64,000 nucleotides of DNA from Clostridia bacterium (GTDB lineage Bacteria; Bacillota; Clostridia; Oscillospirales; CAG-272): the NCBI GenBank assembly GCA_017472305.1, contig JAFUQP010000037.1, positions 43,410 through 107,409 on the forward strand. Direction: 5' to 3'. Under the pieces are notes generated by a model, which saw nothing but the letters and a program-made list of their open reading frames with translations, had not been told where the DNA came from and searched no databases. Of the stretch, positions 41,055-53,546 are shown piece by piece (positions within the stretch are counted from its first letter, which is position 1; every line of letters starts with the position of its first letter). A program made the position numbers and the translations under genes.

Positions 41055-42029
41055 TCAGCTTCTCTTACAGGACTTCTTATACTGCGTGGGAGTCATTCCC
41101 GTGTGCTTTTTAAACAGAGTGGAGAAGTAGTGCGAGTTCGAGAACATAAGCATCTCGGAGATTTCAAAGAAGTTGTACTTCGATTCACGAATAAGCCTTT
41201 TTGCCTCGTTGATTTTCATTTTTGTGAAATAGTCGATTACCGAATATCCGCAGGAGCGAACGAAGCAGCGCGATATGTAGGTTTTTCCAAAGGAAAGCTC
41301 GGCGCTTAATTCGTCCATAGTGAACTTGCCGTATAGCCTCTTTTCCATAAACGCGATAATCTTAAGAACGAACTCGTCGGCGATTATATCCTTCGGGAAG
41401 AACATTTTTCTGTTCGACTCGTAGTAGTGATTTTCTCTGACGATTTCTATGAGCATAAGCTCAAGGCGCAGAAGTATCGACTGCTGACCTGCCCACAGTC
41501 CGTCCTCGGGCTTTAGCTTCAGCCTTCTCATTCTCGGGTTATTGAACGGAAGGTCAAAGGTATTCGACGCCTCGTGAATTATAGCGGCAATGTGCTGCTT
41601 TGTAGACATAGAGGTTTCGATTTTTCTATGCTCGAAGTACTTCATAGCCTCGGAGCCTGAGGAAAAGGCGACTATAAAAATATTCGGCGCAATGCCCTTG
41701 ATTGTCTGAAGCATATGCTTCTCATAGGGCTTGTGGAAGTACATCTCGCCCTGCTTTAAATGGACTATTACGTCGTCGGCAACGACGTTGCACTCGCCTC
41801 TGTCTATATAGACAAGCTCCCAGGGCTCGTGTGCCTCGATACGGTCAACAAAGGAGTCGTCAAACTCAAAGTAGTGTATCGATGTCAAGGAGGTTATGTC
41901 AATGGATTTCTTGATTTTGTAGCCTACTCTCGGCTTTATCCCGTTTTCATCATCGGGACAACCTGATATTTTGGCTTTTAAGCCTATACTCGGCTTGATT
42001 TCGTTTTCGTATTCGGGACAACCTGACAT
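41055..42029 (-). CDS. AraC family transcriptional regulator
   Basis: 324 residues. Residues ~45-150 form a cupin-like ligand domain (HEPWELVYIDRGECNVVADD, GEMYFHKPYEKHML) and the last ~100 residues hold two HTH motifs (MDELSAELSFGKTYISRCF and FFEISEMLMFSNSHYFSTLFKKHTGMTPTQYKK). The first 41 residues are unusual: two head-to-tail copies of a 20-residue segment (SGCPxxENxIKPxxG). The gene is 11 bases downstream of the PEP-utilising enzyme gene, so both are probably one transcript. Effector unknown. Confidence 0.9.
   Translation of the reverse strand: MSGCPEYENEIKPSIGLKAKISGCPDDENGIKPRVGYKIKKSIDITSLTSIHYFEFDDSFVDRIEAHEPWELVYIDRGECNVVADDVIVHLKQGEMYFHKPYEKHMLQTIKGIAPNIFIVAFSSGSEAMKYFEHRKIETSMSTKQHIAAIIHEASNTFDLPFNNPRMRRLKLKPEDGLWAGQQSILLRLELMLIEIVRENHYYESNRKMFFPKDIIADEFVLKIIAFMEKRLYGKFTMDELSAELSFGKTYISRCFVRSCGYSVIDYFTKMKINEAKRLIRESKYNFFEISEMLMFSNSHYFSTLFKKHTGMTPTQYKKSCKRS
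41907..42026 (-). repeat. 60-bp coding tandem duplication at the AraC N-terminus
   Basis: Codons 2-21 and 22-41 encode two copies of a 20-residue segment with 12 identical positions (SGCP..EN.IKP..G.K.K). AraC relatives normally begin near residue 42 of this protein. Confidence 0.8.
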
Positions 42030-42040
42030 TTTGTTTACCT

Positions 42041-44215
42041 TTATTTAGTGTTTTTTTCTAGAATTGTTACCGTACCCTCGTAGGCATCAAGCATTACCGT
42101 GTCGCCGTCGGAGAGAAGGGCGGTTGCGCACCCCACACCTACAATACAGGGGACACAAAGCTCGCGCGCGATAATCGACGCGTGGCAGGAAATTCCACCC
42201 TCGTCGGTGATAAAGCCTGCCGCCTTCGAGAATGCTACCGTGTAGTCGGGTGTAGTCATACTCGCGACCATAATTTCACCAAGCGAAAGCTCGCGAGCAT
42301 CATTTGGTGTGCGAACTATTTTTACCTTTCCCGTCACTCTGCCAAGCGAGGCAGCATCACCGAAAAGCACAGATGAATCCGCAGAGTAAGTGCCCCTCAG
42401 CATTTGGACAAGCTCCTTTGGAGGAAGCCCGAAGCCTACCGTCGAAACACCGTCGCGCCATACCGCAAAATGACCGAGGGCGCGTATCTGAAGACCCGAG
42501 GGCAAATCCCCCTCGCGAAGAAGCGAGGTAAGCTCGCCGTGACCGAGAAGCTCAATTTCATTTTCTTTCAGACCCCGCGCAGCAGAAATAAGCGGGAAGA
42601 GATGCTTCTTTGCGGTGTAATAGAGCTTGTCAGAGCATTCGGCAACCCTCGTTCTGTAGTAAACGAAGCGTGAAAGAAGCCTTGCGTACTCCCTTGCCAC
42701 CCCCGAAAGCCTTTTTTCTTCCGCCTGCCTTCTTTTTATGTTTTCACGGCGGGAATTTTCCTTGCCGTCAAAGTGACTGTCGCTCGTGACAGGGAAGCTT
42801 CCATCTTTAGAATTAATTATTTCGGCATTCAATAAATTCACTCGCTCGATAACCGATTCGGCTGAGCGCTCGTCCTCGGGAAGCAGATAGGAGTATTTTT
42901 TAAGGTATTTCGCAATAAGCCTGCCCGCAGGCTTTCCTTTTGCGCATGTCCTAAGATTTTTTGAGAACAGCTCCGCCTGACCTCTGTAATCGGTGTAGGA
43001 GGGAACGAAGGAGAGCGATAGAAGGTCGCACCCGGGAGCAAGAGAGGAAAGCTTCTTTGCAAGATAGTCGTCGGGGCGCATCATCATAGGAATATAGCTT
43101 TCAAGGTAAATGCTCTCAAAGAACTCGGTAATATCCGAAAGTGCGGCTCTTGAAAGCGAGGAGGGAAGCCTTGAAATAATACGCGAAGCCTTATTAACAC
43201 GGCGGAGAAGCTTTGAAATTCTTCTGTCGAAAAGCCTGTAATCCTTAACCGAAAGCCCCTCGAAAATTTCCTCGGTAATTCCGTCGGAGCGTTCGGAGTA
43301 ATACTCCTCGCCGAATATCAGCGCACCCTCGGTAATCGGTGTCGCAAAGCCGTAGGACTCGAGCTGCTCCTCGGGGAGCGAAGCCTTAATTTGCACCGAG
43401 TGAACGTACCAGGGAAAGTCGCGCGAAACGTACATTGAGTAGCTGCCCTCGGGAAGAGAGTAGCTCGAAAACTCGCTTACGGTAAGGGGGCGCATCTGGA
43501 GAAAATACAGCACTCCCTCGCTGATTGCAAATTCAAAATCGAGGGGAAGCCCAAGCCTTTCCTCAAGCGCCGCGGCAGTGCTTCTTAACTCCTCGAAAAG
43601 CGGATTGTCAAGCCGCTTACACTTTTCTGCCTCGATTTTAGTCGGCTTTTCTGCACCCGAAACCAATTTCTCGCCTGCACCCTCAACATACTCAATAAGA
43701 ACGCTTTCCTTCGACGCGGGAGAAGTGGAGAAGCAAACGCCCGCAAAGTCGGGAGAAATTTGCTTTTGTACTATAACCGAAATTTTGGTGTTCTCGCCTA
43801 TACAGTATGCGCCCTCACCCTTCGGCTTGTATGCTGAGAGCCAGACTCGGCGGATTGCATCGAGAAGCCTGTCCCTTGTGACGGAAAGCACCGTTTCAAA
43901 CTGACCGGCAAAGCTTCTGTCATTGCCGTCCTCGACCTCGGCGCTTGACCTTACGGCATACATCTCACACCCAAGCGCGTCGGCAGAGGTGTAAATCTCG
44001 GAAATGAAGCTCTCGGGAAAGTCAAGACCTTTGATAAGCTCGGCATCGGATAGAGAGAAGCCTTCTTTTCTCGCTTCTCTCAAAAGTCCAATAAAGGAGT
44101 CACTTGTAATAACGAAAAATTCGGGAACGCGCAGCCCCATAGAGAAAAGCTCGTATAGTCCCTTCGCCTTACCGCCTGCCAAGAGGCAGCCCTCGTTATT
44201 CATTTCAATAATCAT
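42041..44215 (-). CDS. PEP/ATP-dependent phosphotransferase-like enzyme (PEP synthase/Rph family)
   Basis: 724 residues. The N-terminal ~300 residues match the pyruvate-phosphate-dikinase ATP-grasp domain (KAKGLYELFSMGLRVPEFF, YAVRSSAEVEDG, SFAGQFETVLSV, YFLQMRPLTV). A ~300-residue helical middle domain follows, then the swivelling phosphohistidine domain with GGISCHASIIARELCVPCIVG (H678). That three-part layout is shared with rifampicin phosphotransferase and PEP synthase-like enzymes; it lacks a PEP/pyruvate-binding barrel. The middle domain, which sets the acceptor, is not recognised. Lysine- and leucine-rich; no membrane segments. Confidence 0.85.
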   Translation of the reverse strand: MIIEMNNEGCLLAGGKAKGLYELFSMGLRVPEFFVITSDSFIGLLREARKEGFSLSDAELIKGLDFPESFISEIYTSADALGCEMYAVRSSAEVEDGNDRSFAGQFETVLSVTRDRLLDAIRRVWLSAYKPKGEGAYCIGENTKISVIVQKQISPDFAGVCFSTSPASKESVLIEYVEGAGEKLVSGAEKPTKIEAEKCKRLDNPLFEELRSTAAALEERLGLPLDFEFAISEGVLYFLQMRPLTVSEFSSYSLPEGSYSMYVSRDFPWYVHSVQIKASLPEEQLESYGFATPITEGALIFGEEYYSERSDGITEEIFEGLSVKDYRLFDRRISKLLRRVNKASRIISRLPSSLSRAALSDITEFFESIYLESYIPMMMRPDDYLAKKLSSLAPGCDLLSLSFVPSYTDYRGQAELFSKNLRTCAKGKPAGRLIAKYLKKYSYLLPEDERSAESVIERVNLLNAEIINSKDGSFPVTSDSHFDGKENSRRENIKRRQAEEKRLSGVAREYARLLSRFVYYRTRVAECSDKLYYTAKKHLFPLISAARGLKENEIELLGHGELTSLLREGDLPSGLQIRALGHFAVWRDGVSTVGFGLPPKELVQMLRGTYSADSSVLFGDAASLGRVTGKVKIVRTPNDARELSLGEIMVASMTTPDYTVAFSKAAGFITDEGGISCHASIIARELCVPCIVGVGCATALLSDGDTVMLDAYEGTVTILEKNTK

Positions 44216-44365: not shown

Positions 44366-44394
44366 TTGATTTATTTTGTCATATATTGTATAAT
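44366..44394 (+). promoter_or_regulatory. Promoter of the six-gene TIR operon
   Basis: TTGATT, 17 bases, TATAAT, about 38 bases before the TIR gene start. A near-consensus sigma-A promoter implies the operon is expressed in growing cells rather than silent. Confidence 0.85.
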
Positions 44395-44432
44395 AAAATA
44401 AATATTTATATAATTTTGCAGAAAGGCGAGAG

Positions 44433-45413
44433 ATGCACCTATTTATCAGTCATAAAAATACAGAACGCGATGCGGCTCTCACACGCGAGCTGGTTTCCTT
44501 TTTGGAGGAGCGCGGAGTATTCTGCTGGGTTGATTTCAATAACCTGAGGCTCGGCGACTGGCGCGAGCAGATTGAAAGGGCAAGAAGAACCGCCTCGGCG
44601 TATATCTTCGTTGTCAGCGAGGACCTTCTTCTCGGTGCAGAGGAATGCACAAAGGAGCTTCGCAATATTCTCGAGGGAGGCGGCAAGGACAGACTCATAC
44701 CGTTCTTTGCCGACGATTATTACTTCACTCACCCCGAAATCTCCGATAAATATAACTACGAGCTTGGACCGATAGCCGCAAAGCAGGGAGTTAAGCTCTC
44801 CTCGCTTGGTAAAACCGAGGCGTTCGAGAGAATTTACCTCTATCTTCCGCCCGAGCTTAAGGAGAACAAGGAGAGCCTGTCGGGCTTTGAGTTTGGTGCC
44901 GATATGAGCGCGCTTGTATCCTATACGGGAAACTCTGAGAGCGTTACTGTAATGGGCGTCAGGGCGATAGGCGACAGAGCCTTTCTCGGCTGCGAAACTC
45001 TTCAAAAAATCAAGGTTTGTGACGGTGTTCAGTCGATAGGCAAGCACGCCTTCCGTGACTGTCCACGGCTCGTCTTTGCCGAGGGCGGCGGCGGTCTTAC
45101 CGAATGCTCGGCGACTGTAATTGAGAAAAATTCGAGTGCCGTAAGGCTTACAGACGGAGTTTACTGCTTTCTTACCGCGGCTATCGGCTGCGAGGGAGAG
45201 CCGACTGAGCTAAAAATCCCCGAGGGAGTAAGGGTTATTGCCTCGGGTGCATTCCGCGACTGCTTCTCGCTTCGCAGGGTAACGCTTCCCGAGAGCGTCG
45301 TTTCAATCGGTGCGTCTGCCTTTGACGGCTGTATTAATCTATCTGAAATCAATTTATCCGAAAAAGTTTGTATCGGTAAGTCTGCGTTTGCCGATACCTT
45401 GATTAAATATTAA
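44433..45413 (+). CDS. TIR domain protein with BspA-type leucine-rich repeats
   Basis: 326 residues. Residues 1-~130 are a TIR domain: LFISHKNTERD (first strand and BB-loop side), a DWREQIERA helix, YIFVVSEDLL, and E75 in ECTKEL, which aligns with the catalytic glutamate (WCxxE) of NAD-cleaving TIR proteins. Residues ~165-326 hold five BspA-like LRR_5 units with the pattern IGxxAFxxCxxL (178-190, 200-213, 268-281, 291-304, 313-320). No signal peptide or membrane helix is present, so the protein is cytoplasmic. TIR is probably the effector or signalling part and the repeats a recognition part. First gene of the operon; 14 bases before the next. Confidence 0.88.
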   Translation: MHLFISHKNTERDAALTRELVSFLEERGVFCWVDFNNLRLGDWREQIERARRTASAYIFVVSEDLLLGAEECTKELRNILEGGGKDRLIPFFADDYYFTHPEISDKYNYELGPIAAKQGVKLSSLGKTEAFERIYLYLPPELKENKESLSGFEFGADMSALVSYTGNSESVTVMGVRAIGDRAFLGCETLQKIKVCDGVQSIGKHAFRDCPRLVFAEGGGGLTECSATVIEKNSSAVRLTDGVYCFLTAAIGCEGEPTELKIPEGVRVIASGAFRDCFSLRRVTLPESVVSIGASAFDGCINLSEINLSEKVCIGKSAFADTLIKY

Positions 45414-45427
45414 TTTTGAGGTGACTT

Positions 45428-47974
45428 ATGGAAAACAAGAACGGTGTTATCAATTCCTGGCTTGAAACCGAGAAGGAAATATCTTATAAAATTAAGAACG
45501 GAGTTATAAACGAGGCTACCCGCCGCGAGCGCGACCCCGAGAAGCTCTTCTCAAGCCTCACACCCGAGAGCCCTACTCTTAAGGTTACTTCGGCAAGCGA
45601 CGGCGCAATTCTTAATATGTGCTATGCCGTAAAGTCTGTGCTTTCGGTGCTTAACTTCGGCGAGCTTGACGAGATTACGGTGCGCGACAAGGAATTCGTA
45701 CGCCGCGGCATTACCGCGCTCGTTGACTACTATGAAAGCGACGAGAATACCTTCAATCAGATAACCGAGCTTAATTACGAGTACTGGGCTGATACCTTCG
45801 GCTCAAGCGAGGTATACATTAACCGTACTATGGTTGCCGTATTCGTTACCTTTATCTATTTCCGCCGCGCGGTAAAGAGAAAGGCGCTCTTTGACATCGA
45901 TACCCCCGAAATCAAGTCGCTCACCGAGCGTATGGCGAAGATTATGAGAGTTATCATTTCCAAGTGGCTCTCCGAGGTCAAGAGAAACAAATTCGAGGGC
46001 TGGGGCTTTATGACCACCTCGACCGAAACGAACCTTGCCGACACCTACAAGGTAGTTGAGGCGATTTCCAAGTATCAGGACGCCTTCGACCAGACCGGTG
46101 AGAAGGCTGACCCCGACTTTATGGCGCTTATCGACGGCGAGGACAACTACACCGAGCGTATCGAGGACGCTATGTACCGCGTCGCGCTCAACGTCTATGA
46201 CGACACGAAGAAGGACTGCTACGGCGAGGGCGTGTTCTACAAGGTTTCGGACTACACAGGCTCCTACTCGGGCTCGCAGAAGTACAAGAGAAGCGATATG
46301 GAGCAGCTTCTTTCCTCGAACCGCTCCTCGGCGCTCTTCCAGCCGCTCTACGTCGCTATGATTACGATGTACGGCTACACCGACAAGGAAGTCGTTATCC
46401 GTAAGTTTATGACCTCGCACACCGAAACGAAGGAAACCTACGAGAAAATTTGTGCTGAGCTTTCCTCTGACCTCGATATCGAGGAGCGCTCCGCCGACCT
46501 TTCGGGACTTACCGAGGTATATGAGTCGCTCGAGCTTATAGTACACGAGCACAAGCCCCTCACAGAGCTTAACGAGGAAGAATACAAGGCGCTCTACGAT
46601 GAGGCAAGAAAGCTCGAGAAGGCTCTCGAAAGGTATGCTCTTGCGGAAATGAAAACCCACGTCAAGGAGTACCGCGACTACCTCAACAAGACCAAGGACG
46701 CGATAGATAACGTTCAGGTATACTACAGAAAGTTCCAGGATTTGCAGAAGCTCGGTATCGTTGACACCGACTATACGATTTTCTCAGGCAGAGACCTCAA
46801 GGCAGGTCAGGTAGAGATTTCAAGACTTAACAAGTCGAATATCGTTACCGCATATCTGCGTCCGCTTCTTCTGACCGCAAAGACTATGATAGTTAACGCG
46901 CTTATCAAGTACCCTCAGGCGGATATGGAGGCGCTCTTTGTTGACATCATCAACTCGGTTTACACCAAGAGCCGCTCAAAGAAGGAGTTTATCTGGAACG
47001 AGGAGGAGAAGAACCTCTTTGCAACCTCGGTAAACTGTGATACCATCACCTACGATTACTTCGATTACTATTCAAAGTACGAGCTTAATTACCGTACTAT
47101 GTCGAAGATTTATCAGGAAACCCAACAGTACCTCAAGGAGAAATTCGCGCTCACCGAGAAGGGAACACCCGACCTCGAGGAGGCGAAGGCAGAGGTTGCC
47201 GAGAAGGTAGGGCTCGGTGACAGTGAAACCGTAAAGGTTACAGTAAACGCTATATTCGACGTAGCGGGCGAGCAAATTAAGGCACTTAAGAACGAGTACG
47301 ACAGCCAGCTTGCACAGAGAGAAAAGAGCTCTGACAAGGAGCGAGCAGAGTATGAGCGCGACAAGGCAAGGATTGCCGAGGAGCGCGAGAAGGAAAGGCT
47401 TCAGTACCGCGAGGAGCGCGCAGAGCTTGAGGAGAACACGAAGGTTGCGACCGTAATTGAGGAGCTTATAAACAACAAGCTCGAGATGTACTTCGACGAC
47501 CTGCTCGGCAGCATTACGCTTCTTAACTTCACCGATACCGAAACCCTGACCCCCGACTTTATTGAAAAGGCATCAAGAGAGGACTCTCCGCTTCCCGAGC
47601 TTGCAAAGGCGAGGGCTAAAAAGTATAAAAAGCAGCTGAAGGCTCTTGCCCTTGACTCCGAGGAGTCGGGACACAGACAGGAAACCGTCTACCTTCGCCG
47701 TGAGAGCGAGAGGCTTCGCGCGCTTCGCGACTCCTTCGCCATATCCTTCGACGGAGTGCTTGACAACGTAATTTCAAACTTCGGCGGCTCGCTTGAGCAG
47801 AAGATGAACGATTACAAGGCGTTCTCCTCGGAGATGAACGTATTCAAGAGAAACTGGTTCGAGAGAACCGTTAAGGAGCAGTCGGGCAAGAGTATGAAGC
47901 ATCTCTTCACCGCGGCAGACCAGCAGAAAATTTATATTTTGACTCCCCAGAAGCCTGAGGAGAATAAGGAGTAA
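45428..47974 (+). CDS. 848-residue coiled-coil protein of unknown function in TIR operon
   Basis: I do not recognise the family. The protein is soluble, acidic and mostly helical. Residues ~185-215 read FEGWGFMTT...NLADTYKVVEAI, reminiscent of the GWG-x-T-x-AL helices of alpha/alpha-toroid folds (weak analogy). Residues ~613-672 form a strongly charged coiled coil (EREKERLQYREERAELEE), followed by a helical C-terminal domain and a short disordered tail (TPQKPEENKE). Low cysteine, no catalytic motif seen. GAGGTGA precedes the ATG. It ends 2 bases before the ParA-like gene, so the two products are likely made in balance and may form a complex. Confidence 0.8.
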   Translation: MENKNGVINSWLETEKEISYKIKNGVINEATRRERDPEKLFSSLTPESPTLKVTSASDGAILNMCYAVKSVLSVLNFGELDEITVRDKEFVRRGITALVDYYESDENTFNQITELNYEYWADTFGSSEVYINRTMVAVFVTFIYFRRAVKRKALFDIDTPEIKSLTERMAKIMRVIISKWLSEVKRNKFEGWGFMTTSTETNLADTYKVVEAISKYQDAFDQTGEKADPDFMALIDGEDNYTERIEDAMYRVALNVYDDTKKDCYGEGVFYKVSDYTGSYSGSQKYKRSDMEQLLSSNRSSALFQPLYVAMITMYGYTDKEVVIRKFMTSHTETKETYEKICAELSSDLDIEERSADLSGLTEVYESLELIVHEHKPLTELNEEEYKALYDEARKLEKALERYALAEMKTHVKEYRDYLNKTKDAIDNVQVYYRKFQDLQKLGIVDTDYTIFSGRDLKAGQVEISRLNKSNIVTAYLRPLLLTAKTMIVNALIKYPQADMEALFVDIINSVYTKSRSKKEFIWNEEEKNLFATSVNCDTITYDYFDYYSKYELNYRTMSKIYQETQQYLKEKFALTEKGTPDLEEAKAEVAEKVGLGDSETVKVTVNAIFDVAGEQIKALKNEYDSQLAQREKSSDKERAEYERDKARIAEEREKERLQYREERAELEENTKVATVIEELINNKLEMYFDDLLGSITLLNFTDTETLTPDFIEKASREDSPLPELAKARAKKYKKQLKALALDSEESGHRQETVYLRRESERLRALRDSFAISFDGVLDNVISNFGGSLEQKMNDYKAFSSEMNVFKRNWFERTVKEQSGKSMKHLFTAADQQKIYILTPQKPEENKE

Positions 47975-47976
47975 CA

Positions 47977-48936
47977 ATGAAGGTTATCAGCTTTAATTCA
48001 TACAAGGGCGGCGCCTGCCGTACGACTACTTGCTACAATACTATTCCTTACCTTGCAAAGATACTCGGCGCAACAGAGAAGCGCCCGCTTCTTATAGTTG
48101 ACTTTGACCTTGACAGTATGGGTATGACAAAGCTTATATCCGACGACGACCGCTTCAACAACACCTATTCGGCAAACAGCCTTCTTGACGCGAGAAACTC
48201 GAAGAACCGCGATATAGTTGACGAGGGTCTTGACGACGAGGCAGGCAAGAGATACTTCTCGGCTTGGGAGAAGGCGGGCAGGATATTCGGACTCGAGGAG
48301 GGAAGCGTTCTTTTTCTCGGTGCCGATGCCGACGTAAAGACTATTTCCGACGCAGTGTTCGAGGCTCTAAGAACCAGCTCACCGATTGAGTGGCTGATAA
48401 AGGAGCTTCGCGACCTCGACGAGGACGTCCGTCCCGTCGCAATGATATTCGACTGTGCCGCAGGTATGCAGAAAACCACGCAGATGGCTCTCTCATACTC
48501 CGACATCTCGGTCGTTTGTATGCGCCCGACTTCGCAGTTCCGCGACGGCACCGCATACTACTTAAAGAACTCATATCGCAAGATATTTGAGAGCAGAAAC
48601 GTTCAGGCAAGGCGAGTTATCGTCGTTCCGACCTCGGTTGCACCCATCACCGCAGGCAAGGGCAGCCTTGCGTATCAGATAATCAGAAACTTAAGAAGCG
48701 ACGCCTTTACCGAGATTGAGGACACGGTAAGCTTCATTTACAGAAGGCTCTCCGACTACTTCACGGTCGATGCCTCTATGATTGACTCCGAGGACGAGTC
48801 GAATATGGGTATTCCCGAGGTTGAGAGGCTTAAGTGGTGCGAGGAAACGCCTCTTATCGCCATCAAGGACCCTACCGAGGGTGAAATTGAGGCTCTCGAG
48901 AGATACAAGAAGCTTGCAGAGGTAATCGCAAGGTAA
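47977..48936 (+). CDS. ParA/MinD-like ATPase with altered P-loop
   Basis: 319 residues. The start MKVISFNSYKGGACRTTT is the deviant Walker A of the ParA/MinD/SIMIBI class (KGGxGKTT): the signature lysine K10 is kept, but the usual G-K pair is C14-R15. Walker A' (LLIVDFDLDSMGMT, with D42) and the Walker B region (AMIFDCAAGMQ, D159) are present. ParA-like proteins with an arginine in this place (KGGVGR type) are known next to signalling and conflict genes. It may act as a nucleotide-dependent switch for the flanking large proteins. AAGGAGT lies 6 bases upstream; the gap to the next gene is 39 bases. Confidence 0.88.
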   Translation: MKVISFNSYKGGACRTTTCYNTIPYLAKILGATEKRPLLIVDFDLDSMGMTKLISDDDRFNNTYSANSLLDARNSKNRDIVDEGLDDEAGKRYFSAWEKAGRIFGLEEGSVLFLGADADVKTISDAVFEALRTSSPIEWLIKELRDLDEDVRPVAMIFDCAAGMQKTTQMALSYSDISVVCMRPTSQFRDGTAYYLKNSYRKIFESRNVQARRVIVVPTSVAPITAGKGSLAYQIIRNLRSDAFTEIEDTVSFIYRRLSDYFTVDASMIDSEDESNMGIPEVERLKWCEETPLIAIKDPTEGEIEALERYKKLAEVIAR

Positions 48937-48975
48937 TTCTCCTCTCACAAATGCATTGAAAGGCAATTTGGCACT

Positions 48976-51210
48976 ATGATTGAAGAATACAAAATTCAAT
49001 ACAACAACCTTGACGAGGTAGCCGAGCAAATCCGCGAGCTCGTTCCCTCGCGCGATATGCAGAGAATTCTTTTCGGCTGTAAGAAGAACAGGGAATTCGA
49101 CAAGAGCGACCTGCTTCAGAATATGACCTTCGTTATCAGAAACGTCATTTCAATGGCATTCGTTCTTCTGTATACGCGCTGGAAGCAGATTTACGATAAC
49201 GAGGCGGAGCTGTCCGCCGAGAGGCTTCGCCGCTTCAGAAAATCGAGATACTCGGGTATCTTCACAAGCCTTAAGGAGCATGAGGAAACTACGCTTGACA
49301 TTATGGTATTCGCCATAATCGAGGTCTGGGTAGGCACTCACGTTGACAACGACACAAGAAGGCTCTTTGACCGCTTCTTCTCGGCTGATAACGAGTGTAT
49401 CGGCGTTTTGCTACAGGACGCTTTGCGTATTGCCTCGATTGACGAGGAGCTGCTTGACGACTCGGGGGCAGAGAAGAAGAACGAAACGGTTTGCGAGCTG
49501 CTTTCTGCCTTTGAGATTTTCCGCTACCTCGATATGCCCGAGGGACGCGAGGACTTCTTTGAGTTCACCTATAAGATTTCAGCCACCAAGCTCGTAAGGC
49601 TTCAGCCCAACAAGAGCTTTGGCGAGCCGAAGCTCGTCTGCCATTCGGGATATTTTGCATATATTAAGGGTGAGCGAGAAACCGAAGAGGTCCCCAACAG
49701 AATAAAGCCCTACATACTCTACGCGACAGGCAAGTTCCTTGACGAAACGAAGTACCTCTACAGAACCTTTGACGATACTATGTACGCCGAGTTCTCGGAG
49801 AAATCCCCCGAGCTGCCGAGCGAGGACGACCCGAAGGAGCGCGAGCAGGTTGAGGCTATGCGGCAGTTTCTCGCCTTCAATTACAAAAGGCTGCGCGACT
49901 TCGCGATAGTTATCTCCGACGCGATTAACGAGATGCCCGGCTACAAGAGAAATATCGTCGAGCAGTTCGGTCAGCGTTTTCCCACGCTTCTCGGAAATCC
50001 CGCGGTCGTTGAGGAAAGTGCGGGCTGGGATAATATAATCTCGCTTCTTCTCGTTGAGCTTGGAATCAGCGAATTTTTGCAGCCTGTAATCGACGACAAC
50101 CTCTTTGAGCATATTATGGAGAATATCAACCGCCGTTATCTTCGCGGTGAGATGTTCGACGAGATTATGGCAGAGTACAGGCAGAATTATAAGAAACTTG
50201 AGGCGAGCTGCCGCTTCCAGAGGCATTTCCTTTCCTCAAACCACAGAGCTTTGATGGCAAGAACCGTTTACACCGCCATCAAGGAGCACGAGAACAGCAA
50301 GTGCGACGTTGACTACAGCGTTTACGAGGAGAGCCTTGCGACAAAGTACGACAAAACGAAGAACCTTGTTGAAAAGCTCCGTCAGCGCCCGGGAAAGATG
50401 ATTGACATCACCGACTTTGAGGAAACGAGAAGAGAGCTTGAAAAAACGCTTCACGACGTTCTCCTCTTTATACAGGTCTACTACAGCGGTATCGACGGAT
50501 ATTCTAAGTACCTTAGCACCTCGGACTTTATTGAGTCGGCAAGGGAAACCTACCTTGAAATCAAGGGCAAGTCGCTCACCGAGCTTTACGACTCCTTGCA
50601 CGAAAGGTGCCTCGAGTATAAGCCCGACACCTCGTACAGCTACTATTCGCTCAACCCCAAGGCAACGAGGCTTAAGAAGCTCATCACGCGCTCATATATC
50701 TGCGACGTTACAAAGCTTGAATACTACGTAACAATAAAGAACGCAATAATCAATTCCAACATTTTCTATTTCGTTGAGCATCTCGGCGACTTCGTCGGCT
50801 GTCGGGAGTATAACGAGTGGCTTGATTATATCCTCGATTTCTTTATCTTCCTCGTTTACAACGACGACTGCATCAACAGAGGACTCGTTGACAGCTTTGA
50901 GTCGGGAGCAATATCCGAAAAGGAGATAGACCCCATCTATCCTTACATAGTCTGCTACTACAGCCAGAATATCGACAGGGACAAGGTAAAGAGATGCGAC
51001 TACAAGGCGTACGTTCCCGCAAAATACACAAGCGACAACACAAACGAGGCGAGCATTACCGTAACCCTTCTTACAGAAAAGGACTACGATATTGACTCAA
51101 ACTACTACTGTATGCCCTTGAAATACGGCGCAACCGGCAATTGGTGGATTGACCCTCTTATGATACCCACCAAGGTCTTTGCCGAAATACTTAAGGAAGA
51201 AAACCGATGA
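48976..51210 (+). CDS. 744-residue orphan protein in TIR operon
   Basis: No family recognised. The protein is mostly helical, rich in Tyr, Phe, Glu and Arg, with no signal peptide or convincing membrane helix. A hydrophobic stretch near residues 50-66 (TFVIRNVISMAFVLLYTRW) is probably a buried helix. The C-terminal ~110 residues are more beta-like and end with a conserved-looking GNWWIDPLMIP segment. Its style (large, helical, aromatic-rich) resembles the 848-residue protein two genes upstream, and the ParA-like gene lies between them. Its stop overlaps the next start by 4 bases, so it is coupled to the SpeD-like protein. Confidence 0.8.
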   Translation: MIEEYKIQYNNLDEVAEQIRELVPSRDMQRILFGCKKNREFDKSDLLQNMTFVIRNVISMAFVLLYTRWKQIYDNEAELSAERLRRFRKSRYSGIFTSLKEHEETTLDIMVFAIIEVWVGTHVDNDTRRLFDRFFSADNECIGVLLQDALRIASIDEELLDDSGAEKKNETVCELLSAFEIFRYLDMPEGREDFFEFTYKISATKLVRLQPNKSFGEPKLVCHSGYFAYIKGERETEEVPNRIKPYILYATGKFLDETKYLYRTFDDTMYAEFSEKSPELPSEDDPKEREQVEAMRQFLAFNYKRLRDFAIVISDAINEMPGYKRNIVEQFGQRFPTLLGNPAVVEESAGWDNIISLLLVELGISEFLQPVIDDNLFEHIMENINRRYLRGEMFDEIMAEYRQNYKKLEASCRFQRHFLSSNHRALMARTVYTAIKEHENSKCDVDYSVYEESLATKYDKTKNLVEKLRQRPGKMIDITDFEETRRELEKTLHDVLLFIQVYYSGIDGYSKYLSTSDFIESARETYLEIKGKSLTELYDSLHERCLEYKPDTSYSYYSLNPKATRLKKLITRSYICDVTKLEYYVTIKNAIINSNIFYFVEHLGDFVGCREYNEWLDYILDFFIFLVYNDDCINRGLVDSFESGAISEKEIDPIYPYIVCYYSQNIDRDKVKRCDYKAYVPAKYTSDNTNEASITVTLLTEKDYDIDSNYYCMPLKYGATGNWWIDPLMIPTKVFAEILKEENR

Positions 51211-52013
51211 ACCATATAATGATTGACTGCTACGGCGCAAACGAGTCGAGGCTTGACGATATGAGGGGAATTAACGATTTGTTCTCCGAAATCACGGGCA
51301 CTCTCTCGCTCACCGCCGTAATGCCGCCCTTTCTTTTACCCTATTATTATTCGAAAAATCCGCTTGACGTAGGAATATCCGCCTTCGTGCTTCTCGAGGG
51401 CGGACACATAACTATGCACACCTTCCCACAGAGGGAGTGCGTGTTTATCGATATGCTCGTTGACGGATATTTTGACCCGCGAAGGCTTCGCGAGATACTT
51501 CAGGGCTACTTTAACTACACCGACGAGAATATCGTCAGAACCGAGCGCCGTTATCTTGATACGAGCATTGATAAGGATAGAATTCTCGAGCCGGGATATC
51601 TTGGAGAGGGTGATTTCGGGCCTCACATAATCGCAAGAATTGAGGACTGTGACGTGACGCTCGAGGGTATTTACGATATTCTCGATACTATGCCCGAGAG
51701 AATTAATATGTGCCCGATTTCAAGGCCTCTTGTGCTTAAGAGCAGCGCAACCGAGCCGAAGTACATCTCGGGTATTGTTCTTATCGCGCAGAGCCATATC
51801 GCCTTCCATTACGATATTGAGCTGCGTACGCTTTACTGCGACCTCTTTAGCTGCTCGTTCTATAAAAGTGAGAAATTTACCGCTTTTCTTGAGGGAATTT
51901 TCGGTAAGTTTGAGAATATGACTATAATCCGCGGCTCAAAGCACGAAAAGAACATCAAGAACTATGAGAGCAAGATTTGTAAGCTTGCCAAGTGGACAAA
52001 GAACGCAAAATAA
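51207..52013 (+). CDS. Internally duplicated S-adenosylmethionine decarboxylase-like protein
   Basis: 268 residues made of two SpeD-like repeats. The N repeat (about 1-115) has HIMIDCYGA and EGGHITMHTFP (64-74): the serine that becomes the pyruvoyl group in SpeD is Gly66 and the catalytic cysteine position is not Cys. The C repeat (about 138-250) has GPHIIARIEDCD and IAQSHIAFH (193-201), with S196, H201 and C216 at the same spacing (+5, +20) as S63, H68 and C83 of bacterial SpeD; only the preceding Glu is Gln. So one half could self-process and the other looks structural. SpeD makes decarboxylated SAM for spermidine; relatives acting on arginine or ornithine exist. No spermidine synthase is present here. 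Confidence 0.78.
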   Translation: MNHIMIDCYGANESRLDDMRGINDLFSEITGTLSLTAVMPPFLLPYYYSKNPLDVGISAFVLLEGGHITMHTFPQRECVFIDMLVDGYFDPRRLREILQGYFNYTDENIVRTERRYLDTSIDKDRILEPGYLGEGDFGPHIIARIEDCDVTLEGIYDILDTMPERINMCPISRPLVLKSSATEPKYISGIVLIAQSHIAFHYDIELRTLYCDLFSCSFYKSEKFTAFLEGIFGKFENMTIIRGSKHEKNIKNYESKICKLAKWTKNAK

Positions 52014-52064
52014 TTATTCAGGCACGGTAAAGTGTTTTTCTTTGCCTGTGAAAAGGGAGTAAAA

Positions 52065-53123
52065 ATGACCTGTGAACAGTTAAGGGAGCTTAAGGCAGGG
52101 CTTCTCTGCTACGGAGTCAACGTTGACCCCGAGGTAGGAGAGGCGCTCGTCAAGGCGCGTCCGTATTTTTATGATAAGGGATTTGTGCACGCGATAAATT
52201 CGAACGTGCTTGGTACTAATATATGCGTCAGCGTTGCCGAGGCATTCAGCGGTCGTTCGCCCTATACTATGTATGAGGAGGGCGGAGAGTTCTACCTTCA
52301 TTACGGCGATGGGGAAAAGACGAAAATAAGGCTCTTTGACGACCTGCCAAAGACAGGCACCGTTATTGATATGCTCGCGCGCCCTCATTCGGACAAGGTT
52401 ATCTCGCTCTGGCCGTCGCTTGTCTGCTGCTACGACCGCCCGGGCAAGAAATGCAAGTTCTGCTCGATAAAGCCGACAGAGGAGCAGGGAATAGTACCCG
52501 CAAAAGATGTTGTAGAGGGACTTTGTGCCCTGTTTTTGAAGAATGACACCTACGAAATGAATATTGGCGGCGGCACGGTGGAAAACCCCGACAGAATGGC
52601 AGATTACCTTGCAGAAATTTGCCGCGGCGTAAGGAAATTTACAAACAACGCAATTTCTCTTGAGATAGCACCGCCCACCCTTTCTAAAATCGCAATGCTG
52701 AAGGAAGCAGGCGCAGACTCGCTTATTATCAATCTTGAGATTGCGAACGATACTCTTCGCCACGAAATCTGCCCCGGTAAATCCTCTATCAAGTACAGCC
52801 ACTACTACGACTGCTACAGAGAGGGTGTCAGGGTGTTCGGCAGAGGCAACGTGTCCTGCGTATTCGTAATCGGTATCCAGGACCCCGAGGACGTTATTGC
52901 GGAGTGTGAGAAGCTCACCGACCTCGGAGTTATCCCGACGCTTATCCCCTTTAAGGCAATGGACGACTGCGAGTTCCGCGACAGACCCAACTGCCCGAAG
53001 GAGGAGCTGCTCTACGTCAGCGGAAAGCTTGGCGAGATGCTCGCAAAAAAGGAGCTTTATCCCGAAAGACAGAAGGGCTGCACAAAGTGCGGCGGCTGCT
53101 CGCTTGAAACGAATTATTGGTAA
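52065..53123 (+). CDS. Radical SAM enzyme with atypical cysteine motifs, TIR operon
   Basis: 352 residues from the ATG at 52065 (GGGAG 5 bases upstream; a longer frame begins at 52032). The radical SAM segment reads CCYDRPGKKCKFCSI: C130 and C133 form the usual CxxC end, but the first ligand would be C121 or C122, giving CX7-8CX2C rather than CX3CX2C. A GGGT motif follows (NIGGGTVENP, ~167-173). The C-terminus carries GCTKCGGC (C339, C342, C345), a possible second cluster site. The fold pattern suggests a BioB-like or MSMEG_0568-like barrel, but the substrate is unknown. Last gene of the operon. Confidence 0.85.
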   Translation: MTCEQLRELKAGLLCYGVNVDPEVGEALVKARPYFYDKGFVHAINSNVLGTNICVSVAEAFSGRSPYTMYEEGGEFYLHYGDGEKTKIRLFDDLPKTGTVIDMLARPHSDKVISLWPSLVCCYDRPGKKCKFCSIKPTEEQGIVPAKDVVEGLCALFLKNDTYEMNIGGGTVENPDRMADYLAEICRGVRKFTNNAISLEIAPPTLSKIAMLKEAGADSLIINLEIANDTLRHEICPGKSSIKYSHYYDCYREGVRVFGRGNVSCVFVIGIQDPEDVIAECEKLTDLGVIPTLIPFKAMDDCEFRDRPNCPKEELLYVSGKLGEMLAKKELYPERQKGCTKCGGCSLETNYW

Positions 53124-53128
53124 AAAAG

Positions 53129-53169
53129 AAAGCAAGAAACCAGGTATGTAGCCCCGTTTCTTGCTTTTT
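53129..53169 (+). terminator. Terminator of the TIR operon
   Basis: 12-bp perfect stem AAAGCAAGAAAC/GTTTCTTGCTTT with a 15-base loop and a T-run, 6 bases after the radical SAM stop. Confidence 0.9.
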
Positions 53170-53345: not shown

Positions 53346-53423
53346 ATACCGCTTTCGCGGTATGCGAACCCTATCGCTTCGCGATAAGGGTTCAAATCCT
53401 CTTTCTCTTCGCCACACGCAAAA
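53346..53423 (+). other. Two hairpins and a tRNA-Ser 3'-end-like fragment
   Basis: ATACCGC-TTTC-GCGGTAT (53346-53363) and GAACCCTATCGC-TTC-GCGATAAGGGTTC (53366-53393) are near-perfect hairpins. From 53386 the sequence AAGGGTTCAAATCC...CTTCGCCACACGC matches, in inverted orientation, the T-arm, acceptor, CCA and flank of the intact tRNA-Ser on the opposite strand. No complete cloverleaf can be folded, so it looks like a broken, convergent tRNA copy. Confidence 0.5.
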
Positions 53424-53426
53424 CAA

Positions 53427-53450
53427 AAAGCTCCCCTATTGGGGAGCTTT
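53427..53450 (-). terminator. Terminator of tRNA-Ser
   Basis: AAAGCTCCCC-TATT-GGGGAGCTTT, perfect 10-bp stem just past the tRNA 3' end, with a TTTTTG tail on the minus strand. Confidence 0.85.
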
Positions 53451-53455
53451 GCGTG

Positions 53456-53546
53456 TGGCGGAGAGAAAGGGATTCGAACCCTTGATACCGGTTAGGGTAT
53501 ACACGATTTCCAGTCGTGCGCCTTAGACCAACTCGGCCATCTCTCC
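53456..53546 (-). tRNA. tRNA-Ser (GGA)
   Basis: 91 bases with encoded CCA. Acceptor GGAGAGA pairs with TCTCTCC; the anticodon stem-loop is CACGA-CTGGAAA-TCGTG with anticodon GGA; there is a long class II variable arm and the T-arm AAGGG-TTCGAAT-CCCTT. It reads UCC and UCU codons. Confidence 0.97.

What the first reader, a model, noticed from the sequence alone, without database searches (positions are those of the whole stretch)
44366..53169. Six-gene TIR / ParA-like / SpeD-like / radical SAM operon, possibly an undescribed system
One strong promoter and one perfect terminator bound six same-strand genes with gaps of 14, 2, 39, -4 and 51 bases. The mix is a TIR-LRR protein, two large orphan proteins around a ParA-like ATPase with an altered P-loop, a duplicated SpeD-like protein and an unusual radical SAM enzyme. 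I know of no named system with this set. A working idea: the SAM enzymes make or modify a small molecule or peptide, and the ATPase with the large proteins and TIR act as sensor and effector, as in immune or conflict systems. Codon use matches the neighbours, so it may instead be a resident physiological module.
Basis: partly seen in the sequence, partly recalled or inferred. Interest (0 to 1): 0.92.

Follow-up and report, generated by a model that had tools for sequence, protein, structure and literature searches.

The report
TIR–ATPase island with amine-making enzymes
Scattered bacteria, many from animal guts, share a movable gene cluster in which an immune-type TIR protein, a ParA-like ATPase and two unknown large proteins sit beside an enzyme that probably turns arginine into agmatine; it looks like an undescribed bacterial defence or stress system.

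Summary
It is a real, unnamed system. In a 31-locus table B, C and D keep one order: B and C in 31 of 31, D in 29 of 31 (two contigs end before it). TIR: 24. After D comes the doubled SpeD-like protein E (18), a GNAT (6) or a PLP decarboxylase (2); 3 loci instead have a SPASM-type radical SAM gene upstream. Three TIR-less loci carry a CorA-like protein.

E is probably an arginine decarboxylase: two E relatives sit in operons with a bona fide speD and speE, one also with an agmatinase gene; four system loci pair E with agmatine-deiminase- or agmatinase-like genes. The island is absent from the matching site of a congener. Three loci have CRISPR or restriction genes nearby (chosen by eye, no background rate).

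Best reading: a conflict/stress system with a B-C-D switch, a TIR or CorA killer arm and an agmatine-making arm. The immune role and the link between the arms are inferred.

The parts
44366..44394 (+). promoter-like site TTGATT-17-TATAAT of the operon
   Evidence: (10 of 12), sequence
44433..45413 (+). A: TIR domain (residues 4-103) + BspA-type LRR_5; putative NAD+-consuming effector
   Evidence: Glu75, at what I recall as the catalytic position of NADase TIRs, invariant in 20 of 20 aligned; profile hits to TIR structures incl. NAD+ hydrolase AbTIR
45428..47974 (+). B: 848-aa core protein of unknown fold (conserved GW.F, P496, W523, Y547)
   Evidence: no Pfam/NCBIfam above cut-off, no PDB relative (best E 0.07); present in 31 of 31 loci
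47977..48936 (+). C: ParA/MinD-like ATPase with P-loop Lys replaced by Arg (KGGACR)
   Evidence: NF047398 52.7 bits, below cut-off 90; motif in 31 of 31
48976..51210 (+). D: 744-aa core protein of unknown fold with C-terminal YYC.P...W.IDP motif; carries a TIR insert or a GNAT fusion in some relatives
51207..52013 (+). E: doubled SpeD-like pyruvoyl-type decarboxylase; N copy degenerate (Ser to Gly, Cys83 to Asp), C copy with Ser196, His201, Cys216; probable arginine decarboxylase
   Evidence: relatives in operons with speD, speE and (one) agmatinase
52065..53123 (+). F: variant radical SAM enzyme (CYDRPGKKCKFC, C-terminal CTKCGGC)
   Evidence: NF045502 130.9 bits over cut-off 125, MSMEG_0568 family under cut-off; motif; follows E in 4 other loci, split in one of them
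53127..53169 (+). hairpin terminator of the operon
   Evidence: -20.4 kcal/mol, z -4.25
42041..44215 (-). G: PPDK_N + PEP-utiliser phosphohistidine protein, no other Pfam domain found; in four relatives it is the gene after F
   Evidence: His motif GG.[ST]CHA in 4 of 5 (the fifth runs off its contig)
41055..42029 (-). AraC-type regulator in the same insert, behind G; membership in the system not shown
   Evidence: HTH_18 and HTH_AraC; lies inside the insert
53456..53546 (-). tRNA-Ser(GGA) at the right edge of the insert
   Evidence: same tRNA beside the aspartate kinase gene in 4 of 4 congeners looked at

Best explanation
A horizontally moving conflict (probably anti-phage) or emergency-stress island. 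Shown: B, C and D form a fixed core; the TIR gene is coupled to it in most loci; behind D lies a decarboxylase or a GNAT, or another SAM enzyme lies upstream instead; the whole is patchy and its site varies. Inferred: B-C-D is a sensor and nucleotide-bound switch (C keeps the signature Lys of KGG but not the P-loop Lys, so it may bind rather than turn over ATP). When triggered it releases the killer arm: TIR, which would destroy NAD+ or convert it into a signal, or in other lineages a CorA-like membrane protein that would breach the membrane. E converts arginine to agmatine; agmatine deiminase- or agmatinase-like genes, where present, take it further. The metabolic arm would either drain arginine during the response or supply an amine that the effector or switch reads. 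In the window's clade F and G would modify that amine or another small molecule.
For: Core order in 31 loci, from records titled Clostridia, Bacilli, Bacteroidota, Fibrimonadales and Treponema (drafts binned from metagenomes). Distances of all ten pairs of A-E correlate (rho 0.57-0.88, 0 of 999 permutations as high), as for a unit inherited together. TIR Glu75 invariant in 20 of 20. Effector swap: the 3 loci with the CorA-like protein (PADLOC CorA, 4e-10 for the one tested; two C-terminal hydrophobic helices in 2 of 3, one in the third) have no TIR hit. Neighbours: Csn2-Cas2-Cas1 (L065), type I restriction and PDC-S49 (L066), Cas9 (L085). Insertion: congener L151 has a ComF-like gene, tRNA-Ser and aspartate kinase close together without the island; L045's island lies between 510-base, 95.7% copies of folC sequence. 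E as arginine decarboxylase: relatives in speD-speE-agmatinase-E and speD-speE-E operons, whose SpeD, SpeE and agmatinase pass their NCBIfam cut-offs; E occurs in 4 of 4 loci with AguA- or SpeB-like genes; SpeD-derived arginine and ornithine decarboxylases are established (PMC10407285, passages read); the C copy keeps Ser and Cys in 18 of 18 and His in 17 of 18; the host has no spermidine synthase match and no other AdoMet_dc (86% complete genome).
Against: No phage or stress phenotype is known. The defence neighbours are 3 of 31 loci, two of them (L065, L066) with near-identical islands, and only those flanks were scanned; no background rate was measured. Patchiness alone also fits other accessory functions. 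In L061 the E active-site His is Tyr although an agmatinase-like gene is present. The E relative L129 is only 32-38% identical to the 18 system E proteins, so the substrate may have changed; L130's operon has no agmatinase gene, which also allows ornithine. The agmatinase-like protein of L061 and the AguA-like one of L057 score below their NCBIfam cut-offs (158.3 of 174.3; 316 of 483 and 307.6 of 381.8), so their substrates are unsure. GNATs and the AA-kinase/SPASM pair do not obviously fit an arginine theme. The host has another OKR-type decarboxylase, so it may make amines anyway. The CorA likeness has no Pfam or PDB support.
Confidence: 0.55

Rival explanations
1. A regulated polyamine or acid-stress module: B-C-D sense NAD+, arginine or pH and switch an agmatine-putrescine route on; the TIR is a scaffold, not a toxin.
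For: E, PLP decarboxylase, AguA- and SpeB-like enzymes and a GNAT can all fit amine metabolism; E is the commonest gene behind D (18 of 31) and may be ancestral on the ATPase tree (root unknown); three loci have the amine enzymes and no TIR hit.
Against: No transporter or spermidine synthase was recognised in the operons (by eye and the scans made); TIR Glu75 is kept in 20 of 20; TIR-less loci bring a CorA-like membrane protein; patchy spread over several phyla and varying sites are unusual for a housekeeping route.
Confidence: 0.25
2. A natural-product or signal-molecule cluster: E, F and G (decarboxylase, radical SAM, PPDK-like phosphotransferase or ligase) build a small molecule from arginine, and A-D control or resist it.
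For: F and G follow E in 4 loci besides the window, one well supported group; G's weaker NCBIfam hits include prodigiosin ligase and rifampin phosphotransferase models, far below their cut-offs.
Against: F and G occur in only 5 of 31 loci; no carrier protein, peptide precursor or exporter was noticed (not searched for systematically); most E loci have neither F nor G (13 of 18).
Confidence: 0.12
3. E is still an AdoMet decarboxylase and the system handles SAM-derived signals (compare SAM-AMP and CorA in type III CRISPR).
For: E is SpeD-like, F is a SAM enzyme, and a CorA effector binds SAM-AMP in the Bacteroides fragilis Cmr system (PMC10600005, passages read).
Against: E relatives sit in operons with a separate SpeD that passes its equivalog cut-off; window E is below the SpeD equivalog cut-off TIGR03330 (66.1 of 75.65 bits); the C copy lacks a Pro at the place of T. 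maritima Pro71 in 18 of 18 system E proteins (that this is the paper's marker Pro is my assumption, its figure was not seen, and relative L130 has Pro there); a PLP decarboxylase stands in place of E in 2 loci.
Confidence: 0.08

Closest known systems
MinD/ParA-like domains of VMAP and AP-ATPase conflict systems (Kaur et al. 2020, PMC7159879, passages read)
   Same: MinD/ParA-like domain predicted inactive and linked to effectors of conflict systems; the NCBIfam AAA_KGGVGR model weakly matches C (that this model covers those domains is my inference)
   Different: C scores 52.7 of a 90-bit cut-off; no VMAP, MoxR, vWA or AP-ATPase gene among the window operon's hits; partners B and D are different; a standalone small ATPase
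Thoeris and other TIR defence systems (CBASS TIR-SAVED, Argonaute-linked TIR)
   Same: TIR protein in a short operon; PADLOC hits of A: TIR-SAVED 32.9 bits, Aga-TIR 21.9, ThsB 19.6
   Different: no ThsA, SAVED, cyclase or Argonaute hit for the other operon proteins; ATPase, B, D and decarboxylase have no counterpart there (recall)
Type III CRISPR CorA / SAM-AMP signalling (PMC10600005, passages read)
   Same: CorA-like membrane protein in the TIR-less loci (PADLOC CorA 4e-10)
   Different: no Cas10, NrN or SAM-AMP lyase noticed beside them (by eye only); the messenger, if any, is unknown
SpeD-derived arginine/ornithine decarboxylases and SpeD1SpeD2 fusions (PMC10407285, passages read)
   Same: E is two SpeD-like halves, one degenerate; E relatives or E itself beside SpeB- or AguA-like genes
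   Different: the published fusions are AdoMetDC + ODC, or AdoMetDC + a dead C half, the N half being the AdoMetDC where tested; here the N half is degenerate and the C half intact, and the gene sits in a TIR/ATPase island
PspA-linked polyamine operons (PMC11237479, passages read)
   Same: polyamine enzymes tied to a stress-response scaffold
   Different: no PspA, CesT/Tir chaperone or band-7 gene among the operon's hits

Membership tests
KGGVGR-motif variant ATPase (NF047398) | score over the curated cut-off of 90 bits | tested here: not met
   52.7 bits
KGGVGR-motif variant ATPase (NF047398) | P-loop Lys replaced by Arg in a KGGxxR motif | tested here: met
   31 of 31
Thoeris | ThsA-like NAD+-binding effector beside ThsB TIR | tested here: not met
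   window A-F and G scanned with PADLOC: weak ThsB hit for A, no ThsA
VMAP ternary / AP-ATPase conflict systems | VMAP, MoxR-vWA or AP-ATPase partner | tested here: not met
   no such family among the Pfam/NCBIfam hits of window A-F and G; whether VMAP has a model in these libraries was not checked; other loci not scanned one by one
NADase TIR effectors | catalytic Glu (position from recall) | tested here: met
   invariant in 20 of 20
NADase TIR effectors | NAD+ cleavage | not testable with these tools
   needs enzyme assay
AdoMet decarboxylase SpeD (TIGR03330) | score over cut-off 75.65 bits | tested here: not met
   66.1 bits; the broader Pfam AdoMet_dc is passed at 88 bits, cut-off 25
SpeD-derived arginine decarboxylase | pyruvoyl Ser, His, Cys present | tested here: met
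   C copy: Ser and Cys 18 of 18, His 17 of 18
SpeD-derived arginine decarboxylase | agmatine produced from arginine | not testable with these tools
   context only
MSMEG_0568 radical SAM family (TIGR04043) | score over cut-off 303.7 bits | tested here: not met
   143.7 bits
CRISPR-type CorA effector (for the TIR-less loci) | CorA-like C-terminal membrane helices with soluble N domain | tested here: inconclusive
   37 bits to PADLOC CorA for L062's protein, hydrophobic C-terminal helices; no Pfam or PDB match

The most novel reading that the evidence does not exclude
The decarboxylase makes an amine (agmatine) that the TIR enzyme joins to ADP-ribose by base exchange on NAD+, giving an ADP-ribosyl-amine messenger or poison; the B-C-D switch gates it, and in other lineages the same or a related amine signal opens the CorA-like channel. 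This would be an immune signal built from arginine metabolism.
Probability: 0.1. Interest if true: 0.95.

Novelty: categorically new. Interest (0 to 1): 0.86.

Why it matters
It is a recurring multi-gene system with two core proteins that match no Pfam family above cut-off (26 B and 25 D members scanned, apart from D's fused GNAT or TIR), no NCBIfam family (window B and D) and no solved structure by sequence profile. Its loci come from records of four phyla, and it ties a TIR or membrane effector to what looks like arginine-agmatine chemistry. The searches showed no description of such a set (open-licence papers only; listings, abstracts and passages seen). If it is immune, it would add amine metabolism to the known currencies of bacterial defence, and the replacements of effector and enzyme make the role of each slot directly testable.

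Tried and rejected
E as AdoMet decarboxylase: rejected as first choice because E relatives sit beside a separate, cut-off-passing SpeD.

F as a core part: rejected, 5 of 31 loci, and an F relative (47% over residues 85-350) stands without B-E or G hits in the part of G111 shown.

NF047398 as a finder: it rings in 142 of 142 family genomes and 14 of 14 controls, 0 over its cut-off, so it cannot single out the system, although its list did show G031's ATPase; six others of its loci that I opened (L006, L007, L010, L011, L012, L018) looked by eye like ordinary ParA/MinD-type proteins.

Phage or viral carriage: one scan of viral contigs gave 6 weak ATPase relatives, not opened. Plasmid, phage and E. 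coli record collections were not searched. B as CorA-like: a 16.9-bit hit in 1 of 26 members, dropped. D's 15.5-bit JetC and C's 18.7-bit PDC-M28B PADLOC hits: dropped as weak. Fold of B and D: no result. Flanking direct repeats: of 29 rows (27 distinct loci) only L045 had a long one; 29-base matches in L061, L065 and L066 were not followed up.

Dropped rows: L044 and L004 are the same loci as L067 and L070 and were left out of the 31; L065 was left out of the tree and the distance test as a near-copy of L066; also L053's short D, L085's split B, TIR domains inside D, L049's second TIR and ORFs open at contig ends.

Counts corrected: A-E together 13 (not 14) of 31; four or more of the six families 28 (not 29) of 31.
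Full report
What is there. The window is G000:C19:43410-107409, part of a 2.03-Mb draft genome, 86% complete. Its family mate G031 has the system on a contig of 178,603 bases, the same length and gene map as a record titled Oscillospiraceae bacterium (L070), which suggests Clostridia. The six genes, their gaps, the promoter-like site and the terminator are as described. A is TIR_2 plus LRR_5; C a ParA-like ATPase; E two AdoMet_dc stretches; F a variant radical SAM enzyme; B and D match nothing above cut-off.

Finding relatives. B as a single query is found in 2 of 146 family genomes, the second (G031) weakly, and in none of the 3 congeners drawn. In G031 the same order B-C-D appears, with a TIR domain inside D, then a CxxCxxCC (YkgJ-type) protein and an Orn/Lys/Arg decarboxylase. 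A profile of the two ATPases found 3 further genomes of 295 in the order, all with TIR-B-C-D; one has E directly after D with the same 4-base overlap, two have a GNAT fused to D. The five-row ATPase profile then brought in 28 system loci among the 80 kept from genome contigs.

The 31-locus table (window, L043, L045-L070, L073, L085, L112; L065 and L066 near-copies; L044 and L004 dropped as duplicates). B and C: 31 of 31. D: 29 of 31; in the other two (L054, L068) the contig ends inside C. L053 has a 270-aa D piece; L085's B is split over two frames. TIR (own gene or in D): 24; of the other 7, three (L057, L061, L062) have a CorA-like protein, L053 has an upstream 581-aa protein with a sub-threshold TIR (24.7 of 28 bits), and L055, L063 and L068 are cut by contig ends. 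Behind D: E 18, GNAT 6, PLP decarboxylase after a YkgJ-type gene 2; SPASM-type radical SAM upstream instead 3 (with an amino-acid-kinase gene in 2); not visible 2 (L054, L055). Labels other than A-E come from single-sequence searches at E 1e-6; representatives were tested against Pfam (L085's YkgJ-type protein gave no Pfam match). F and G: 5 (window, L060, L063, L069, L073); F is split in L069; in the window G is the divergent gene at 42041-44215, elsewhere it follows F. AguA-like: L053, L057, L062 (PAD_porph in 3 of 3); SpeB-like: L061; all four have E. A further protein H (589-765 aa, RyR domain in the one tested) lies nearby in 5 (L058, L059, L069, L085, L112).

One unit. Distances of A to E correlate for all ten pairs, rho 0.57-0.88, with 0 of 999 permutations as high. 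On a tree of 30 ATPases the GNAT (5 rows), SPASM (3) and PLP (2) types are each one side of a supported branch, E (18) needs 4 changes, and the window forms a group (100/99) with the four other F/G loci. So E may be the older partner that was replaced several times; the root is not known.

E. The C-terminal copy keeps the equivalents of T. maritima Ser63 and Cys83 in 18 of 18 and His68 in 17 of 18 (L061: Tyr); the N copy lacks Cys83 in 18 of 18 and the Ser in 12 of 18 (residue roles from PMC10407285, passages read). An E profile finds 3 of 391 class genomes: the window and two in which E lies in speD-speE-agmatinase-E (L129) and speD-speE-E (L130); no B-D profile hit was seen in the 7.0 and 19.9 kb held there. 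SpeD (428 and 438 bits, cut-off 256), SpeE (310 and 305, cut-off 250) and the agmatinase (275, cut-off 174) pass their equivalog cut-offs. A separate SpeD and an agmatinase beside E argue for arginine decarboxylase; L130 would also allow ornithine. The own genome shows no other AdoMet_dc and no spermidine synthase match, but one OKR-type decarboxylase elsewhere.

Effectors. TIR Glu75 is invariant in 20 of 20. The profile's best solved relatives are bacterial TIR proteins; the third is named NAD+ hydrolase AbTIR and the fourth the CRISPR-associated Cat1; that the first two and Cat1 are NADases is recall. The CorA-like protein matches PADLOC's CorA (37 bits) and has C-terminal hydrophobic helices, but no Pfam or PDB match. 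All 31 ATPases have Arg in place of the P-loop Lys.

Mobility. B: 2 of 146 family genomes; D profile: 1 of 348 phylum genomes, the window's own; F: 2 of 246; G: 1 of 246 at E 1e-40. These are draws with a loose first filter, so misses are possible. Congener L151 has a ComF-like gene and tRNA-Ser(GGA)-aspartate kinase about 0.8 kb apart, where the window has 12.5 kb holding an AraC-type gene, G and A-F (ComF is below its NCBIfam cut-off in L151 and unmatched in the window, the two being 43% identical; the next gene on that side, 552 aa in L151, is 86% identical). I looked at 4 of the 13 congeners with the aspartate kinase: all 4 have the tRNA-Ser beside it and no hit to the operon in the stretch held; only 1 has ComF on the other side. 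L045's island lies between 510-base, 95.7% copies of folC sequence. GC and GC3 are near those of the neighbours, so the acquisition does not look recent by that measure. Defence genes lie near L065, L066 and L085; they were picked by eye and the other flanks were not scanned.

Mechanism and limits. That this is a conserved mobile system I hold at about 0.97; that E is an arginine decarboxylase at about 0.75; that the role is conflict or immunity at about 0.65; the combined statement at 0.55. The way the metabolic arm and the TIR arm meet is a guess. B and D have no assigned fold: structure prediction was off and profile searches found nothing.

Literature. PMC10407285, PMC7159879, PMC11237479 and PMC10600005 were seen as passages; PMC8195603 held none of the terms searched in it; others only as listings. 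The searches showed no description of this set; most subscription papers are outside that library. Thoeris, base exchange by TIR enzymes and the TIR catalytic position are from general knowledge, not from a call.

Noticed in passing
window 53389-53469: A near-copy of the tRNA-Ser 3' end (31 bases) lies on the opposite strand just beyond the real tRNA-Ser, as an inverted repeat; a 19-base inverted copy is in congener L152, an imperfect one in L151, none of 18 bases or more in L153.
   Followed up: partly
L058:4377-6650, L069:2123-4420, L059:4222-6459, L085:5527-7734, L112:35-1804: A protein of 589-765 aa (RyR domain in the one tested), 50-60% identical to L058's copy, far more alike than B-D, sits near the system in 5 of 31 loci.
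   Followed up: partly
L129:3582-6905 and L130:7232-9840: Clostridial spermidine operons with a doubled SpeD-like protein beside a bona fide SpeD and SpeE: a likely fused arginine/ornithine decarboxylase with the active site in the C half.
   Followed up: partly
L049:2145-3422: A second TIR protein (425 aa, TIR hits), with a Cys-rich gene behind it, about 3 kb from the system on the other strand.
   Followed up: no
L069:14270-15334: The radical SAM gene F is split over two ORFs in this contig; left as it is.
   Followed up: no
L050:5968-6459 and L068:1571-2005: Small related proteins that look by eye like HD-type (RelA/SpoT-hydrolase-like) enzymes beside two of the loci.
   Followed up: no
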